From contig JAALGY010000043.1 in NCBI GenBank assembly GCA_032358165.1, positions 806,001-870,000 of the forward strand: 64,000 nt of DNA. Reading direction: 5' to 3'. Positions 26,935-36,039 of the stretch are shown here, one piece after another (position 1 is the stretch's first letter; each line of letters begins with the position of its first letter). A program made the translations under genes and the position numbers. A model generated the notes under the pieces. That model did no database searches. It was not told where the DNA came from and saw nothing but the letters and a program-made list of their open reading frames with translations. Origin of the DNA: Diplosphaera chodatii. Taxonomy: Eukaryota; Chlorophyta; Trebouxiophyceae; Prasiolales; Stichococcaceae.

Positions 26935-27254
26935 CTGCAACTGTTGCGCGGTGCCCAAGCCTACGCTGCGCACTGCAGGGCGTAGTAAAATGGAGAGGCT
27001 TGTGCGGGTTTGCCTACTGTCCAGCGATCCGAATCATCACGGACCTTCAGTCAGAATGGCCTGCTACACAACGCACGCAGGACATCTTCAGGCACCAGCA
27101 TGCACCTTCGGCATGCAAAGTGAACACCCTGTATGCAGCAAGATCTGCCGCAGCGCACTGTCACGAGACTTACGCGAAAATGCTGCGATGCGATCAAGGT
27201 CACATGATGGCAGCCTGCCTTTGTGCGCTTGCTGCCAGGCAGAACGTCCGACTC
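26935..27254 (-). promoter_or_regulatory. ALG5 5' flank, left of the transposon
   Basis: What remains of the ALG5 side of a divergent promoter shared with DCP1 before transposon insertion. The last 7 bases (27248-27254, CCGACTC) are one copy of the target-site duplication. Confidence 0.5.
27248..27254 (+). repeat. Target-site duplication, left copy (CCGACTC)
   Basis: Seven bases immediately outside the left inverted repeat, identical to those immediately outside the right one (36033-36039). Confidence 0.85.
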
Positions 27255-27431
27255 CAGTCATGTAGGGCACCTTAACACTAGGCAAGAAAGGGTGGTTTTG
27301 ATAGCAGAATTTCAGTGGGGCTGTGCCGATTGATAGCTGGTCCAGGGCAGATTGATAGCTGCGAACGCGGCTAAGTGCGGCCAGCACACAGCACCCAAAC
27401 ATGCGCAACCAAGCTCAAAACATTCTTTGAC
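27255..27431 (+). repeat. Left terminal inverted repeat (177 bp)
   Basis: Reverse complement of 35856-36032 with two mismatches (near 27347 and 27427). Inside it the 11-mer GATTGATAGCT occurs twice, at 27328-27338 and 27350-27360, 22 bp apart; these are candidate transposase-binding sites. Confidence 0.95.
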
Positions 27432-27475
27432 GTTACTAGCACATATTGTGGGCTTGCTCCACATGCGTGTTGCCG

Positions 27476-30403
27476 ATGCCTGACGCTGTGCCGTCTGACA
27501 GTGCGGGCCCTTCGGCACCTGAACTGACGGCTCCAGAGCCTGGCACTGCGCTGCAGACCTGCGCGCCTCGTGCTCCTCGAGGTCTGATCGCCAACAAAGC
27601 AAAGCGCTTGGAGTTCTGCAACGAAAACCTCGAAATAGCAGTAAAAGCGCTGGAAACGTGTTCTAGGCGGTGTGGTGCAAACTTCTTGCTCTGCACTCTT
27701 GATATAGACGCAGCCGGCCATCAGCGGGTTCTATCTCATGCAACGAAGTCACTGGAGGGCTTGCTCGATGATATACAGCCCAAGACAGCGTTGCCAGCTC
27801 ATGTGCGAGCAGCGGAGGGTGCTCGACGCCTGGCGAGGGCTCGAGCTGCGGACTTTGGCTCTCTGGACATCAAGCTGTTGAGGCGTGTAGTCTGTGAGCT
27901 GCTGGATCAGCTCATGCCGGACCGCAAGGGCACCCTGCCCTACAGCGCCTCAGGCGAGGCGATCACTCCGGAGGATGTGCAAGACATGTACAAATGGTTT
28001 CCTGCGGCAGCCATTGACAGCTGGCGATCGCCAACCGCCTGGTCCGGCTCAGAACTCAAGGCAGTTGCCGCTGCGGCGGTGCGGACAGCGGGGTTCATGC
28101 GGGTGGCCTTGCCACGACTGCTGCGCAAGCTGCGGCTGCGGATCAAGGATGAGGCTGAGGTAGATTGCGCGCTGCAGCAGTTGGCCCGCACGCCAGCGCA
28201 ACCAGCAGTACCGACTGTGGAGCAGATACAGCAGTCAGATGTCCCTGAGGCACAGGACCAGCCAGCTTCGGTGCCGCCTGAGATCCTCAACGGTGTGCCC
28301 TGCATCTCCTGCTGCCATTCAAAATATGACGTGCAACTGCATGTTTCGGGCATGGCTGATGCTCCAGCATGTTCAGGGTTACCGGCTGCGGGTGTGGCTT
28401 CCAGCCTGGAGTGCGCATCCTGCTACAGCCATGCATGTGTGCATGCCGTCAAATAGTACACTTCGGTCTCAAGTGCGCGTTTCAAGTCATGTCTCGAACG
28501 GTGCAAAGCATGGTGTGGCTGCTGCATGTAGGTTCTGGTCATGAGCTGGTGGAAGGCGAAGGGGGCTTGCTGTTTTTGGGTGCAACAGCCAGCATTGGCA
28601 ACATGCAGCGCGTTCGGGAGGCCGCCAAGCTGAGGCCGACTATCAACTTCACGATCAACAGTCGTGCAGTCGCTCTGAACGCGTTTTACAACGCACTGCA
28701 GGCCTGCGGTGGTGCGGTTGATGCGGTGAGGCATACTGCCAGAACCCTGAGTTGAGGCCATGTTCCTACAGCTTCTTCATGCCTGCGGCGGCATAACCCC
28801 ATTCTGATCTGTGAACTGCCAGCTCCTGTGATGCAGACGTTCGAAGTTCGCCATGGGGCTGCAGACCCGCTTCGCAAGGTCGCTGGATTGTTGGGCGTGG
28901 AGTGCAAGACTACATGGCGTACACGTCTGACCACGCTTTGGACCAAGGAACTCCGACAGTTTGTGCAACATCCAGGTGCAGTGTACTTGTTGTGTGTGCA
29001 CGCCCGCTTGACACTTGTGGGTCGTCTGCCTATGCAATTCTGCTGCTGACACGTACATTCGTGCTGAAGCAGGTGCACCTCGGGCCACCGCTGACGATGC
29101 TGCAAGGCAGACATCGAATGCAGGTGCTGACAGCCCAGCACACTTTGCTGTATCAACTCTTACACGCTGGCACTATTCTCATACAACCATCTGGTGCATA
29201 TGGATTACCGTTGCATGGAGTGTGTCCTTCACATCACGCTTGCACACAGGCACGACTGCCCAGGGCGAGCCGCAACCTACCCCACAACAGGGTCTTGCTG
29301 CTCTGCCGCCATCTGATGTCCTGGCTGGTGACGCCAGTGGCGGGGCTTCAGCCATGCACGGCGGGGAGGCAGGTGCGCAGGATCGCCTGCAAGGGAGCGT
29401 ACCTACTTTGACCAGCTGTATCCTTGCTCATGCAAACAGCGATCATTCACTCTTGCAGGCAAGCTGTCTCTGCTTGCAGGGCCACAATGCAACGCTGCAC
29501 AAGGAGAGGATGAGGTGCTGGCTGCAACGTCTGGATCAATGACAGCAGCAGCGCATGTCGATGTCTTGACAACAACAGCGTCGGCGGTGGCAGCATGTGC
29601 AAACAGGCCAGTCAATGACATCTCAGCACTGGCAGCGCTGCCTGCTATGCGACGTGACATGGCAGGAACAGCAGCACCTCGGCGTGCAGCTGTGGTGCCT
29701 GCTGTCGCTGTGCCAGATGCAGCTGCGCCAGGCCCTCATGCCGCTGCAGGCATGCCGTCAGCAATGCAGCCACTCACTGCATTCTTGACGCAGCCCAACG
29801 CTTCAGTGCTGATAGCGGCAACAGAAGCAGCAGCTGCAGTGTCGCTGCCGCTGACCGCACCAGACCCAGCATCTGCTGCACCAGCAAGCCAGTGTACACC
29901 ACCAGGTCAGCAGCTGCTATCTATGTCACACCGCTACCACACTCAGCAACAGTGCATGCTTGAAGTCGACGTGCCATAGCTGAACCTGACGTTCTGGCTG
30001 CGCAGAGCGTGCCGCAGGACTGCATGTCTCGTGGCCTTCCCCTGTGGTGACTGGCTGCTCGTACCTGCAAGAGCAGCCGCAGCCACAGCCGCAGCCGCAG
30101 CCGCAGCCACCGCCGCAGCCGCAGCAGCCGCAGCAACAGCGCAAACGCAGCCATGTACTCCAGCTTCAGTCAAGTAGGCATTGTCTGCAGGCGTGCTGCC
30201 ATACCCATCAGAACTTGAGAACTGGGCTCCTCTGAGGCTTTGCATCATCAACCGACGATTACTCGCAACTACAGGCTTACAGCACCTGCTATGCCTTTGC
30301 AGCACGGACATCGCCTAGGAAGCGCCCGCGTCCACCGGAGACGGCTGGGGTAGTCTCGAGAAGTGGTCGTAGCGTGCGGCCGCCGCCATGCTATGACCCT
30401 TGA
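27476..30403 (+). CDS. Transposon accessory gene, unrecognised multi-exon protein
   Basis: The first exon (27476-28292, ATG at 27476) encodes 272 aa: a Pro/Ala-rich start, then helical sequence with KAKRLEFCNENLEIAVKAL, LLRRVVCELLDQLMPDRKG and VALPRLLRKLRLRIKDEAE. Phase-consistent exons follow: 28532-28725 (HELVEGEGGLLFLGATASIG, INSRAVALNAFYNALQ), 28837-28975 (EVRHGAADPLRKVAGLLG, WRTRLTTLWTKELRQF), a short exon near 29072, then Ala/Ser/Pro-rich exons (about 29250-29365, 29481 on). The C-terminus is inferred: a Q-P repeat exon (about 30010-30176) spliced to a last exon starting at 30315, with basic TSPRKRPRPP and RSGRSVRPPPCYDP, stop 30401-30403. No homologue known to me. It starts only about 45 bp inside the left TIR, so the TIR is probably its promoter. 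It could be a DNA-binding or regulatory partner of the transposase. Confidence 0.6.
30060..30140 (+). repeat. CAGCCG/CAGCCA hexanucleotide repeat
   Basis: Imperfect tandem hexamer encoding Gln-Pro in the frame that splices to the last exon of the transposon's plus-strand gene. Simple-sequence tract; length may vary between strains. Confidence 0.7.
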
Positions 30404-32237
30404 TGGATACAATTTCAACCTGCACTGTGCATCGCAACACTACTGACATGCAGCTTATATCAGATTTTCGTTTATCAAAGCACAGATACAAAATTGGTAA
30501 AGTGCAGAGTACGGTCAACGCATTGCTCCTGTCTTCTCGCATCACCCAGATGCAGCCGTCTAATTTGTCGTTGCTGCGACCGGGAAGCGATGTAGATATC
30601 ATCACTGCCACTGCAGAGTGTGGCTTTCAAGTCAGACCAGCGCATCCATATGTACATGGGATGCACTGCACAATTGCAAACATGACTTTGCATGACGAGT
30701 ACAGTACCTGGACTCCCACTGTTGTGAAGAGGACAGCCTGGTGCATAACCTTCGGATGATGGCCTGTGCAGATACATCAAACGGTTCTAATGCATACGAT
30801 ACCGAGGTCAGTCCCCCTAACAATCGAGGCTTGGCGTTTGCAATGTGACACCAAGGCTCCCAGGCTGCATCCGCCATGTGGTGTGCACCAAACAAGATGG
30901 CATGGCGGTCATTTGATGACACCCCTGTACAATGACACTCTGGCATTGCATCTCGGTGACAGCACTAGAACCGTGAGCTCTGCAGCCAACGCTCTGCGTT
31001 AAGGAACAGCCACATGAGCTCACTGGAACCCTGATGTCAATGATTGTCCCCCTAGCGCTGCATGGGCGTCTGATTGGCCGGCGTACTCAGACCATGTGTT
31101 ACTGCTCGCTGCCTTCTGTCTCCATCACACTGATTAAGAAGCTGCTCCTCCTGCAACAGGTGGCTTTGCCTGGCCCTGCGGCTAATGTGCAGTTTGTACG
31201 CTGCTGCAAAGCCAGCCAAGCATATGCATGCCAGAGCGGTATCAGCATTTCAGCATTTGAGGTCAGTGTACCGGTTGGCCTCAGATATTGCAATGTGAAT
31301 ATCCACTGCGAGTCCAACTTTGTAGTGTCCTCCCAGGCCAGGCATGCCATCTGATCGTGAGCCTGCATCAGGCAGCCTGGGCAGACTTGGAACTCACACA
31401 ACAGTAAGAACACAACAAACGTATCGCATGCATGAGAGCCACATGTTAGTCGTGATACATGCCCGGCGCTCGCTATTGTGTGCGCCTGAAGACTTGTCAA
31501 GTGAGGCAATGACTGTATCAGCCACATAGCACAATCCAGTCAACATTCAACTTGTTACCATCAACGGCGCAATGTAGCAGATGCAACAGATTGTATCCTG
31601 GAGCAAGTGGCTATGAAAGTCTGGACTGGCCGTTGATGCGCACACAACTCACCCTGCGTCAACCGTAACCCACAGTCAGTATCCCCAGCACTTGAACCTT
31701 TGTCCAGACTGCTTGCGATCTTTGTTGCCACCGTGAAAGCATCTGTAATTGGCTGGACACTTGCCTGGAGCTGCGGGCATTGCCGCTGCGCAACTGCCTG
31801 CCATCTGCTACCAACCAGATAGATATTGACAAGAACTAAGTGGGCCTTCGGCTGTTGTTGCAGGACACGACCTCGAACGGTGCTTTGTCTTGCATTCACA
31901 GCGTTGTGGCCGATGATGCTGGTCACAATGACTATGCATGCATGTGCAGGCAGGGAGAACACTGCAACTTCTGGGATGTGCATGGCCATGCACTCACCGC
32001 CGAATTAAGCATGCGATTCATGTCGGTGCACACATATTGTAGTATTGACAGTCCATGAATGTCACCAGAACGTAGTAGTATCAGAGCAGGTGCAGTGATT
32101 TGGCTTGCTTCATCAGCTCTTATGTAGGTTAGGTAGATACTAGACATGATGTCAGGTCATCGAGTGCGCTTGCTTCGTGTATTGGTAAACATCATCCGTT
32201 GTAACTGGGTCATCTGTCGAGCAGTGTCGAGCAGAAC
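30404..32237. other. Interior of the transposon between the two convergent genes
   Basis: 1.8 kb with lower GC than the flanks. Several frames of 100-140 codons occur on both strands (for example minus 31561-31989 and plus 30400-30759), but none has a domain, a start in context or a clear splice link. Could contain 3' UTRs or extra exons of either gene. Confidence 0.4.
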
Positions 32238-35200
32238 TTACACGAAGGTCACACCCTGCTGCAACAGCACCTGTGCACGGTTCATTCTGTACAGCCTGAA
32301 GCGCATGAACCGCATGAAAGTGATCTGATCCATGTAGGCAACCTGATACTCCAGCCGCCGCAGCGCCGAATTCTTCTGCTCTGCCAGCGGCGAGTTGGTG
32401 ACCTTCGGGTAGTTGCCTGAACGGTAACCCTGGGAGCAGTTGGTGTGGTCACGGTAGTGCAACTCGTCAATCAGGAACTGGGTGCGGCTGAAGTGCTGTG
32501 GCTCGCGCCCTTGACGAAGAGGTGCACGTTGCAGCCGTTGTCCATCATGAACAGGTCTGGCGGCTGCTGCAGGTGGGTGTACAGCAGCTCGAAGATGGTG
32601 CGCGGCGACTCCGAATCTGGCATGATGGCAAACATCAAGCACTTGCTGCAGTGCATGCACCACAGAAGCATGATGCCAGGGATCAGCTGCATGGTGCTGC
32701 GCTGCCACTTGTTGCAGCTGCTGCCGACGGACATGCCCATGCTGTACTGATCAGCCATGTACAGCCGCAGCCGCCGCGCCACCTGACTGCCGCCATCCGG
32801 ACTGTGATGCCATGGTTCAGCATATGCGCCGCTGCAGATGCCGGTCCGCAGCATCGACTCCTCATTTGACCACAGGTGCGGTGCCCTGCTGCCAGTGCCC
32901 CTCCTGCCGTTGGGCGCTGGCGGCGGGCGCGGCTGATCGCCACGCAGGTCAAGACGTGTTGCTGCAGCAACACGCACAAGATCTGGCTCCACAGACCGCC
33001 GCGCCACCTGCATCATAGGGACAACGGATGGGCCAGATCTGAGGCAAGATTTGACAGAACTGCATGACCAGAACAGGTCTCAACAAGCCCTAGTATCGTA
33101 ACTTTTCTTCAGCATCACACCGACCTCCAGCAGGGCTGCCAGGAAGTCGTGGATGCCTGCCGGGAGCTCCGCATTGCCAAGGCTGGGGCGCACCGCGTCA
33201 TACAGCAGCGGGCTCTGGTGACGCAGGTGACGCTCGTGCGCTGCGCTGAGCATTGTGCCCTCAAGCAGTGCGTCAATGCTGTCCCACAGCGCAGGTGGCA
33301 GCAGCTGGTCTGCTGGTGCTGTGCTGCCAAGGCTGTGGAGGACAGGCCGCCAATGCTTTACTGCCAGCACCTTGTCGTTAGCGGCGGACTCTGTCGTCTG
33401 CAGGAATGGCAGCAGGGTGCGCTGCTGTGAGGTGTCTGGCAGCGCGCTGATGCTGTCTTTGAGCTGCTGGAGGGCAGCTGGTGTGAGGCCGCCGCTGGTG
33501 GAGCTGCCAAACAACAGCAGCTGCTTACGAATTGATGGCTGCACCACAAAGAGCCGCGTCTGCAGTGTGTTGCCTGCCACTCTACAACTGTTGGCGGCAG
33601 TCTCATGCGGCCGCTCAATGAAGCAGTGCTTTGACTTCATGCCAATGGCAATGGCGTCAGCTGTGTACCAGCGTGGCGCGCAGCTGCAGCTGTAACCACC
33701 GTGCCAATCAATCTGCATGAGGTCCATGAGATCGAAGCAGGCCTGCTGGAAGGCGTGACGGAAGCTGTCCAGCCAGTGCTGCAGCTGTGCCCGAGGCGCG
33801 CTGCACAGCACACATGCATGTACTGTAAGTGGCATGTGGCTGGAGCAGCGGCAACTCGTCGACCTCGATTGAATGCACTGTGCCAGGCTTCATCAGGCTC
33901 ACCTCTTGTATGCCTTCAGTGCCTCACTCCAAAAGCCATGGAATGTGACGCTGCGGTGGCTGCTGCAAGCGTCCACCCAGGCATACATCAGGTCATGGCC
34001 GAACGCCAGGTGGGCTGTCTTCCGCAGCACGCCATGCTCGATGCCGTCCACCTCCAGCACGCCATCGCAGCCATCGGCTGTGCACAGGTAGTCCATGAAG
34101 GCTGTTTCGATGGCCGCGCCGCGCATGAAGACGAGGCTGCTGACCGGCTGCGGCTCACCCCAGCTGACAGTGCCACAGCTGCCACAGTGCTGCGACGTGT
34201 CAGGCTGGCATTGCTCTGGCAGCGCTCTTGCGCCGCGTTTTCGCTCTGCAGCCACCAGACCCCGAATCAGTGGAGGATCAGCAGCACCTTGTATGATGCA
34301 CTGCTGCGAGCACATTCACAAGCAACAATCAGCCACGATAGGAAGGATGCAAATATCAGAAAGGGCTAGCTTGCTCACCCGTGTCAATGCTCAGAAGGGC
34401 GGCATCATCACGGAGGTCCTCCGGCAGGCGACGTCTGGACAGGCAAGTGCTGCGGCGCTGGCCGGTAGCATAGTCGATGTCCTTTTCGACTTTGGCATCA
34501 TAGCTGGACCAGTCGGCAGCCGCTGGGGCATTGTCGGCCGCATCGGACTGCGGGGCGACGTGCTGGGCATGGTTGCAGCGCCAGTTGCCATTGGCGCAGG
34601 TGCAGCAGCGGCCGTTGGCATCCACAATGCCCCAGGTCTCAAAGCTGCTGCCAGGGCGTACAGCTCGCATCCCATGCTGTGGCAGCTCTGTCACGATACT
34701 GCCGCCGTTGCACAGAAGCGCATCGTTGGCGGCATTCATCAGCTGTCGCAGGTGTTCCTGCCCTCCGAGGCTGTGCACAAGGTGCTCGCTGCATGGGCAG
34801 AGTGGTGGAGTATCGCCAAGCCAGGCAGCTGACTGTTGATCAGGCTTGTCGACGCCCTCCACCAGGTCATACAGCCATTCATCGCTGCCAGTGCAGCTGC
34901 CGCCTTTGCACCAGCCCAGCAGCTGCTCGCGGTCCGCAAACTGGACAAATTGCAGGCCAATTACGGCCCAGCGCAGCTTGCGCTGCGGACCGGTGCGGAA
35001 GCTGCAGGCAAAGTCTGCTGCTTTGCGATTGGCGCTGACACGCACGAGCGGGCTGCTGGAGTGCTCGCTGAGTGCCGCTGCTAAATGTAGCGAGCCAGGC
35101 AGCTGCTGCAGTGACGCTGTGTGTCGGGCGTCTGTGCTGCTGCTGCGGTCTGCATCGTCGATGCTGCTGCCACCACCGCCGCCGCCGCTCGCAAAGAAGT

Positions 35201-35681
35201 CTTGCCATCGGTCGTCATCTGACTCGTCCAGCTGCATCTGCAGCGGCTCTGCATCTGAGTCTGCATCGCCGAGCGGTTGACGGCTGTCAGCTGCACTTGG
35301 GGCTGGCGCGGCTGCATGTTCCAGTTGTTGCCTGATCACGGGTGGGACGCCCGATGTCGCTTCTGGCGACTCGCCAGCCGCTGGAGCTGCTACAGGGAAG
35401 TCTTCAGCGGCTGCGTATGCCTCAGGAAGGGGTAGCCGCAGGTTGGTCGCCGGATCGTACACCCATGCGGATGCATGGCAATCAGGCTCGGATGCAGCAC
35501 ACATCAGCCTTGCAATGATCCGCGGCGTATCCTGCACAGGACCCGTTATATGATATGAGAGATGCACAAGATGTGTCGAATCCACATACGGATCGGCCGT
35601 TCGCTGCCAACAGCCTTGCTTCTGGCAGAGGAGCATGCACACAACCTGCTTTAGAACAGCCCGCGGGGCAGGACGCACCAT
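32238..35681 (-). pseudogene. KDZ/HMGXB3-like DDE transposase with SWIM zinc motif, apparent frameshift
   Basis: Exonic blocks: 35681-34380 (about 430 aa) with an Asp/Ser/Gly-rich linker and a SWIM-type zinc motif C-x-C...C-x-H in CTCANGNWRCNH (about 34600); about 34300-33911 with QHCGSCG and FMRGAAIETAFMDY; 33798-33100 with SCSCAPRWYTADAIAIGMK; and 33016-32238, the catalytic part. Its key residues are CNKW, LIPGIMLLWCMHC, MMDNGCNVH (acidic), DELHYRDHTNC (His/Cys cluster) and NSPLAEQKNS (Glu), ending at a TAA. This D..C / H....H..C / E pattern is what I associate with KDZ-type and HMG-domain-protein-3-like transposases. At 32508/32507 the conserved reading changes frame with no room for an intron, as if one base were missing, and the first intron does not phase cleanly. 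Hence probably inactive, unless these are sequencing errors. The N-terminal start is unresolved and may extend toward 35850. Confidence 0.7.
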
Positions 35682-35855
35682 GCTGGAGTGCTGTGCTGGG
35701 TATGTGGCCTGATGCCTTGAAGTGCATGACGTGTCGGCACGAATTAGGCCCCGTAAGACGCACAGGCTGCCCCCGACCCGGTGCAGGTAGAGTCCTCAGG
35801 TTTGCTGCAACGGCTGCGTGTGCTAGCGCACCACGGCACAAACTGCGTCTTGGAT

Positions 35856-36032
35856 GTCAGAGAATGTTTTGAGCTTGGTTGCGCATGTTTGGGTGCTGTG
35901 TGCTGGCCGCACTTAGCCGCGTTCGCAGCTATCAATCTGCACTGGACCAGCTATCAATCGGCACAGCCCCACTGAAATTCTGCTATCAAAACCACCCTTT
36001 CTTGCCTAGTGTTAAGGTGCCCTACATGACTG
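35856..36032 (-). repeat. Right terminal inverted repeat (177 bp)
   Basis: Reverse complement of 27255-27431. Carries the matching inverted copies of the repeated 11-mer at 35927-35937 and 35949-35959. Confidence 0.95.
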
Positions 36033-36039
36033 CCGACTC
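36033..36039 (+). repeat. Target-site duplication, right copy (CCGACTC)
   Basis: Identical to 27248-27254 and in the same orientation, directly outside the right TIR. Confidence 0.85.

What the first reader, a model, noticed from the sequence alone, without database searches (positions are those of the whole stretch)
27248..36039. Complete 8.8-kb DNA transposon with 177-bp TIRs and perfect 7-bp target duplication
Positions 27255-27431 and 35856-36032 are reverse complements with two mismatches, and CCGACTC flanks both ends. Inside are two convergent multi-exon genes. The combination of long TIRs, 7-bp TSD, a KDZ/HMGXB3-like transposase and an unrelated second gene is not an element I recognise.
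Basis: seen in the sequence. Interest (0 to 1): 0.92.

Follow-up and report, generated by a model that had tools for sequence, protein, structure and literature searches.

The report
Recently active two-gene DNA transposon family
An 8.8-kb mobile DNA element sits here between matching inverted ends and a 7-letter target duplication; three closely similar full-length copies lie elsewhere in the genome, and two of those lack introns with letter-perfect precision, which likely means that their genes were rewritten from spliced RNA copies.

Summary
In detail: 177-bp terminal inverted repeats (2 mismatches), 7-bp duplication CCGACTC, two convergent multi-exon genes. It is a recently active DNA transposon. 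Four full-length copies (8.1-8.8 kb; the closest pair differs by 1 base in 8,778) and 13 copies of a 5.5-kb element sharing only the ends were found in this 85.6-Mb genome. Perfect 7-bp duplications flank 12 of the 15 copies with both flanks readable. Uninserted paralogues with one target copy were read for 5 of 13 insertion sites searched, not for the window's own. The right gene is the likely transposase; it has no Pfam match, relatives only in unnamed public assemblies and this genome, and in the window copy is frameshifted before the presumed catalytic Glu. The new point: the C12 copy lacks exactly five introns of the left gene, the C21 copy exactly one of the right gene. Paralogues show introns at three of these six places, so this is loss, best explained by a spliced-RNA or cDNA template.

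The parts
27248..27254 (.). left target-site duplication CCGACTC
27255..27431 (+). left 177-bp terminal inverted repeat, outer end CAGTCATG; TGATAGC at TIR positions 45, 77, 99
27476..28292 (+). left gene exon 1; Met start shared with P0002, similarity to P0002 ends at this exon's end
28293..28531 (+). left gene intron 1 (239 bp, GT-AG); exactly absent from the C12 copy, an intron stands at the same place in paralogues L026/L027
28532..28725 (+). left gene exon 2
28726..28836 (+). left gene intron 2 (111 bp, GT-AG); exactly absent from the C12 copy, an intron stands at the same place in L026/L027
28837..28975 (+). left gene exon 3 (the C21 copy lacks one T near 28960: left-gene frameshift there)
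28976..29072 (+). left gene intron 3 (97 bp, GT-AG); exactly absent from the C12 copy; 8-bp microhomology
29073..29123 (+). left gene exon 4
29124..29249 (+). left gene intron 4 (126 bp, GT-AG); exactly absent from the C12 copy
29250..29372 (+). left gene exon 5
29373..29479 (+). left gene intron 5 (107 bp, GT-AG); exactly absent from the C12 copy
29480..29979 (+). left gene exon 6 to first in-frame stop (607-aa protein); further 3' splicing to about 30404 is possible and unresolved
32238..33007 (-). right gene last exon in the frame of the C21 copy; frameshift near 32508 in this copy, stop codon begins 32473; second presumed catalytic Asp codon at 32542, presumed Glu codon at 32381 (out of frame here)
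33008..33124 (-). right gene intron 3 (117 bp, GT-AG, predicted)
33125..33800 (-). right gene exon 3; first presumed catalytic Asp codon at 33658
33801..33902 (-). right gene intron 2 (102 bp, GT-AG, predicted)
33903..34245 (-). right gene exon 2
34246..34378 (-). right gene intron 1 (133 bp, GT-AG); exactly absent from the C21 copy; an acceptor-like AG stands at the same place in paralogue L037
34379..35504 (-). right gene exon 1, predicted Met start; CxCx6CxH cysteine/histidine cluster begins at 34604
35856..36032 (-). right 177-bp terminal inverted repeat
36033..36039 (.). right target-site duplication CCGACTC

Best explanation
The window holds a complete terminal-inverted-repeat DNA transposon, one of four full-length copies found in this genome and flanked by a 7-bp target duplication, which is predicted to move by cut-and-paste with the product of its right-hand gene as the likely transposase, while intron-free versions of its genes likely arise in single copies by repair or conversion from spliced RNA or cDNA. 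Shown: the ends, the duplications, single-copy empty sites at other insertions, near-identity of copies, 13 shorter relatives with the same ends, and the exact absence of six GT-AG introns in two copies. Inferred: that the right gene is the transposase (position, size, D/D/E-like motifs shared by the relatives that span them, no fold evidence); that the left gene is an accessory protein that helps transposition, for example by binding the TGATAGC repeats of the TIRs; that the window copy, whose transposase frame is cut before the presumed Glu, was moved in trans by a copy like that on C21, whose own left gene is frameshifted; and that the 5.5-kb elements ride on the same machinery. Intron loss, inferred: a spliced transcript or its cDNA served as template when a broken element, perhaps an excision gap, was repaired; reverse transcriptase genes are abundant in the genome.
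For: TIR/TSD; 38 genome matches to the TIR; perfect 7-bp duplications in 12 of 15 copies with both flanks readable, all twelve different; empty-site paralogues spanning the junction for 5 of 13 sites searched (14 spanning matches; 40 of 45 candidates scored), the 9 matches read all holding one target copy with no gap at the junction; near-identity of copies; B elements share only the ends (no match of either A protein in 3 of 13 B copies tested). Six intron absences, each with exactly one GT-AG placement; 0.62% of enumerated deletions of the left-gene region have one (1112 of 178669). Paralogues L026/L027 have introns at the places of introns 1 and 2, L037 an acceptor-like AG at that of right-gene intron 1. 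The C12 copy reads as one open frame of 619 codons, 607 from the ATG. dN/dS is 0.44-0.56 in six of seven comparisons (two left-gene, three right-gene, one between paralogues) and 0.08 in the seventh. Reverse transcriptase domains: at least 151 matches.
Against: No family or fold evidence for the right gene being a DDE transposase: Pfam negative, PDB profile search negative, AlphaFold model poor (mean pLDDT 45) and without significant Foldseek match. The left gene's function is untested and its model is poor. The losses spare 3' introns (right-gene introns 2 and 3; any 3' left-gene introns), against the 3' bias expected of simple reverse transcription from the tail. Each loss has 1-8 bp of microhomology; intron 3 with 8 bp alone could be a simple deletion. 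Two of 15 copies (L018, L022) lack a target duplication and L021 has 6 of 7. No empty site was found for the window's own insertion. Both frameshifts are in short single-letter runs and only the assembly was seen.
Confidence: 0.8

Rival explanations
1. [quoted passage not shown]
For: Fungal Kyakuja makes 7-bp duplications and has CA..TG ends (PMC12730594, passages); KDZ elements exist in green algae (PMC10828217, passages; PMC8226300, passages) and in this genome. Cysteine clusters before the presumed catalytic part resemble KDZ-associated clusters (recalled).
Against: PF18758 matches neither the right-gene exons of the C21 copy nor P0001 though it works on this genome; the comparison with a local KDZ exon is negative, but that profile is thin; fungal Kyakuja has no TIRs while this element has 177 bp; the one algal Kyakuja passage reports an 8-bp duplication.
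Confidence: 0.4
2. The missing introns of the C12 and C21 copies are separate ordinary deletions or an assembly or polishing artefact, not RNA-templated loss.
For: Every loss has some microhomology (1-8 bp); only the assembly was seen, not reads.
Against: All six losses have a GT-AG placement, whereas 0.62% of enumerated deletions do; five neighbouring losses in a copy with a single other substitution against the window in 8,098 bp; the resulting frame is open throughout; one would not expect an RNA-polishing artefact to act on one copy of four only.
Confidence: 0.12
3. The introns were gained by the other copies rather than lost by these two.
For: Introner-type mass gain is known in some algae (recalled).
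Against: The more diverged C21 copy has all five left-gene introns, and distant paralogues L026/L027 have introns at the places of introns 1 and 2; the five differ in length (239, 111, 97, 126, 107 bp). Likeness of the introns to each other was not tested.
Confidence: 0.03

Closest known systems
Kyakuja (KDZ superfamily) DNA transposons
   Same: 7-bp target duplication and 5'-CA..TG-3' ends in fungal Kyakuja; a transposase plus a second gene there; present in green algae (PMC12730594, PMC10828217, PMC8226300, passages)
   Different: long TIRs here, no Pfam KDZ match, no TET/JBP domain found in the Pfam scan of the left protein; algal Kyakuja-3_cRei was reported with an 8-bp duplication
Zisupton and Dileera (KDZ)
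   Same: DNA transposons of the same size class with accessory genes (PMC12730594, passages)
   Different: 8-bp duplications there; 7 bp here
Dada
   Same: 6-7 bp target duplication; elements of 4.7-11 kb (PMC3706591, passages)
   Different: Dada lacks TIRs and targets small RNA genes; here 177-bp TIRs; the kind of target gene was not tested here
hAT7 (hAT families with 7-bp duplications)
   Same: 7-bp duplication (PMC12730594, passages)
   Different: no hAT domain match in the Pfam scans of this right gene and P0001
Reverse-transcriptase-mediated intron loss in plant CACTA transposases
   Same: whole introns lost in frame from transposase genes (PMC4158355, passages)
   Different: there inferred between families of many species; here between copies of one family, one of them one substitution away from the intron-bearing form

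Membership tests
TIR DNA transposon (class II) | terminal inverted repeats at both ends | tested here: met
   177 bp, 2 mismatches
TIR DNA transposon (class II) | target-site duplication of constant length at many sites | tested here: met
   7 bp, perfect in 12 of 15 readable copies, 6/7 in one, none in two
TIR DNA transposon (class II) | empty site with one target copy | tested here: met
   9 paralogous empty sites read for 5 of 13 insertions, incl. the C21 full-length copy; none found for the window site
TIR DNA transposon (class II) | active transposase protein | not testable with these tools
   right gene inferred; no domain or fold support
KDZ superfamily | KDZ transposase domain (PF18758) | tested here: not met
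   no match in the right-gene exons of the C21 copy or in P0001; the model matches 3 other places in the genome
Kyakuja (KDZ) | 7-bp target duplication | tested here: met
   yardstick PMC12730594
Kyakuja (KDZ) | CA..TG ends without TIRs (fungal families) | tested here: not met
   ends CAG..CTG fit, but 177-bp TIRs are present
HMGXB3-like proteins | sequence relation to HMGXB3 | not tested
Zisupton / Dileera | 8-bp target duplication | tested here: not met
   7 bp; the eighth base matches at 2 of 13 sites only
Dada | no TIRs | tested here: not met
   177-bp TIRs
Dada | insertion in small RNA genes | not tested
   insertion sites were not scanned for RNA genes
RNA- or cDNA-mediated intron loss | exact exon-exon joins at GT-AG borders | tested here: met
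   six of six
RNA- or cDNA-mediated intron loss | loss of neighbouring introns together | tested here: met
   introns 1-5 of the left gene in the C12 copy; only one intron in the C21 copy
RNA- or cDNA-mediated intron loss | 3' bias of loss | tested here: inconclusive
   losses are 5'; right-gene introns 2 and 3 are kept, and 3' left-gene introns are unresolved

The most novel reading that the evidence does not exclude
A previously undescribed algal transposon lineage, separate from all named superfamilies, whose copies shed introns in real time because excision gaps in the element are repaired on its own spliced transcripts; its copies are reciprocally defective (left gene intact and right gene broken in three copies, the reverse in the fourth) and so propagate only as a mutually complementing community that also carries 13 non-autonomous riders.
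Probability: 0.22. Interest if true: 0.86.

Novelty: new variant of a known kind. Interest (0 to 1): 0.6.

Why it matters
Intron loss is usually inferred from comparisons between old families or species. Here the intron-bearing and intron-free forms of one gene sit in copies that differ by a single other base, so the template question (spliced RNA or cDNA against plain deletion) becomes directly testable in the living organism. The element also adds a DNA transposon with long TIRs, a 7-bp duplication and a transposase-like protein without a Pfam match, with relatives found so far only in unnamed public assemblies and in this genome.

Tried and rejected
Inverted duplication or assembly repeat without transposition: rejected by different 7-bp duplications at each of twelve copies and by empty sites. 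KDZ membership by domain: not met. The CxC4 model (PF18717) found nothing in the genome or in the controls, so that search says nothing. Viral contigs: no relative confirmed. Solved structures: three weak hits with E 0.12, 0.15 and 0.71, not credible. Structure models of P0001 (mean pLDDT 45) and of left-gene exon 1 (mean pLDDT 42) were too poor to use; a Foldseek search with the first gave no match at E 0.001 or better among 344 at E up to 10. The protein searches scored only the roughly 7,990 candidates sharing most words each, so further relatives may exist. The 3' end of the left gene: 704 combinations of two GT-AG introns stay open to a later stop (longest 703 aa), none preferred. First multiple alignments with exon fragments were misplaced by the aligner and replaced. 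Repbase and Dfam could not be searched; papers were searched, so 'undescribed' holds only for these.
Full report
In the window, 27255-27431 and 35856-36032 are reverse complements over 177 bp with two mismatches, and CCGACTC stands on both sides; no other exact inverted 20-mer pair exists in the 64 kb. The 177-bp end has 38 matches in the 85.6-Mb, 55-contig genome of the window.

Copies. Four full-length copies of family A were read: the window (C37, 8,778 bp), C17 (8,778 bp, 1 substitution), C12 (8,098 bp) and C21 (8,651 bp, about 99.3-99.5% in two long pieces). Thirteen copies of family B (about 5.5 kb) share the outer 175-180 bp at 93% with A and nothing else detectable (compared with one B copy); B's own inverted repeats are about 555-564 bp at 96%; the copies L012, L015, L020 and L023 are identical over 5,542 bp. 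A search with part of B's interior found only these thirteen; one with its repeat found these, the A ends and four diverged places. Neither A protein matches B in the three copies tested (L012, L014, L021). Four further places, L025-L028, are diverged relatives of the end; L025's end starts 1.6 kb from a contig end in TTTAGGG repeats.

Target duplications. Of 17 full copies, two (L013, L016) lie at contig ends; of the other 15, twelve have a perfect 7-bp duplication, L021 has 6 of 7, and L018 and L022 have none. In the 13 aligned sites the first target base is always G or C and A at position -4 is common (9 of 13), a weak preference. Empty sites: thirteen joined flanks were searched in the genome in one string, 40 of 45 candidates being scored; 14 matches span the junction for 5 of the 13 sites (L011, L015, L020, L021, L023), and for the other 8, the window's included, none is in that list. 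The nine spanning matches that I read each hold one 7-mer with no gap at the junction, identical to the duplication in three of nine and differing at one or two bases in the other six. One of the five sites is that of a family A copy (C21).

Genes. The C12 copy lacks five stretches of the window's left gene (239, 111, 97, 126 and 107 bp) and has one other substitution. Each stretch has exactly one placement with GT..AG borders, and without them the gene is one open frame of 619 codons, 607 from an ATG. The start and the end of exon 1 agree with P0002, a 338-aa protein from an unnamed assembly that is 70% identical up to the exon border. The right gene, spliced from the C21 copy, gives 970 aa from a predicted Met; P0001, an uninterrupted 933-aa protein from an unnamed assembly, matches it at 40% over 838 columns. 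A profile search added 14 shorter relatives, P0003-P0016. In their alignment, by my count, TADG stands in 6 of 6 rows that span it, LDN in 8 of 8 (LDNGC in 7) and AEQKN in 3 of 3; this element itself reads TADAI, MDNGC and AEQKN. I read these as a D/D/E-like set, which is inference. A CxCx6CxH cluster resembles a SWIM finger (recalled). No Pfam family matches the four pieces tested or P0001 with a credible score. dN/dS is 0.44-0.56 in six of seven comparisons and 0.08 in the seventh, between two near-identical paralogues; dS is near or above 1 in the right-gene comparisons, so these values are rough.

Broken frames. The window, C17 and C12 copies lack one base relative to C21 near window 32508; the window's right gene stops after 893 aa, before the presumed Glu. 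The C21 copy lacks one T near 28960 and its left gene ends after 461 aa in another frame. Both sites are short single-letter runs, so a read check is wanted. If real, no copy has both genes whole, and the three near-identical copies would have moved with help in trans. Mobilisation in trans of giant elements with broken transposase genes has been proposed in Ectocarpus (PMC12477816, passages).

Intron loss. Besides the five left-gene losses on C12, the C21 copy lacks exactly the 133-bp first intron of the right gene and keeps introns 2 and 3. Introns stand at the places of left-gene introns 1 and 2 in the paralogues L026 and L027, about 72% identical over the longest piece, and an acceptor-like AG stands at that of right-gene intron 1 in L037; I did not test introns 3-5 in paralogues, but the C21 copy has them. 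So these are losses. Enumerating deletions of 80-260 bp (steps of 3) from every base of the left-gene region, 1112 of 178669 (0.62%) have any GT-AG placement; five of five by chance would be of order 1e-11 if independent. Microhomologies of 1-8 bp exist. A spliced RNA or cDNA template is the simplest cause. Reverse-transcriptase-mediated loss has been argued for CACTA transposases between families (PMC4158355, passages), and RNA transcripts as templates for break repair in human cells are the subject of PMC12065846 (search listing and start of abstract only). The genome holds at least 151 matches to a reverse transcriptase domain. Against the simplest version, the losses lie at the 5' side.

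Placement. Fungal Kyakuja has 7-bp duplications and CA..TG ends but no TIRs; Zisupton and Dileera make 8-bp duplications (PMC12730594, passages); an algal Kyakuja has been reported with 8 bp and imperfect TIRs (PMC10828217, passages). The present element has 7 bp, CA..TG and 177-bp TIRs. PF18758 matches three other places in this genome but not this gene. I therefore do not file it as KDZ, though a distant relation stays possible. Structure prediction did not help.

Verdict: a real, recently active, apparently unnamed DNA transposon family, new variant of a known kind, with exact intron loss in two of four copies as its most surprising feature.

Noticed in passing
G000 genome, e.g. C52:987504-1038481, C24:884682-929229, C15:1742513-1786886: Reverse transcriptase domains fall in clusters of tens of kilobases on many contigs, like the Zepp-type LINE clusters described at centromeres of Coccomyxa and Chlamydomonas (PMC8226300, passages).
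   Followed up: no
L053, L054, L055 (C38:10391, C39:8360, C37:1924465): A separate classical KDZ (PF18758) transposon family lies in the same genome, two of the three places near contig starts and one near a contig end.
   Followed up: partly
L033/L066 and L038/L067 (C38:29k and C37:1577k): A second family encoding a right-gene relative (about 45% identical) has two copies 99.2-99.7% identical in the compared pieces.
   Followed up: partly
L025:4517-6103 (C47 end): A left end 74% identical to the TIR starts 1.6 kb from a telomere-like (TTTAGGG) contig end; it reads TGAAAGC at two and TGCGAGC at one of the places where family A has TGATAGC.
   Followed up: partly
L065:1405-1441 (C29:842.8k): A weak match to TIR positions 116-152 lies upstream of the C29 right-gene paralogue, possibly the end of another family.
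   Followed up: no
C10:3078939-3131228 and L020: One 5.5-kb element sits in a sequence with at least five uninserted paralogues spread over 52 kb of the same contig.
   Followed up: partly
L012 (601-6142): No gene was recognised in the 5.5-kb element, yet nine of its 13 copies (L012 counted) are over 99.9% identical; part of its interior has no other match in the genome.
   Followed up: partly
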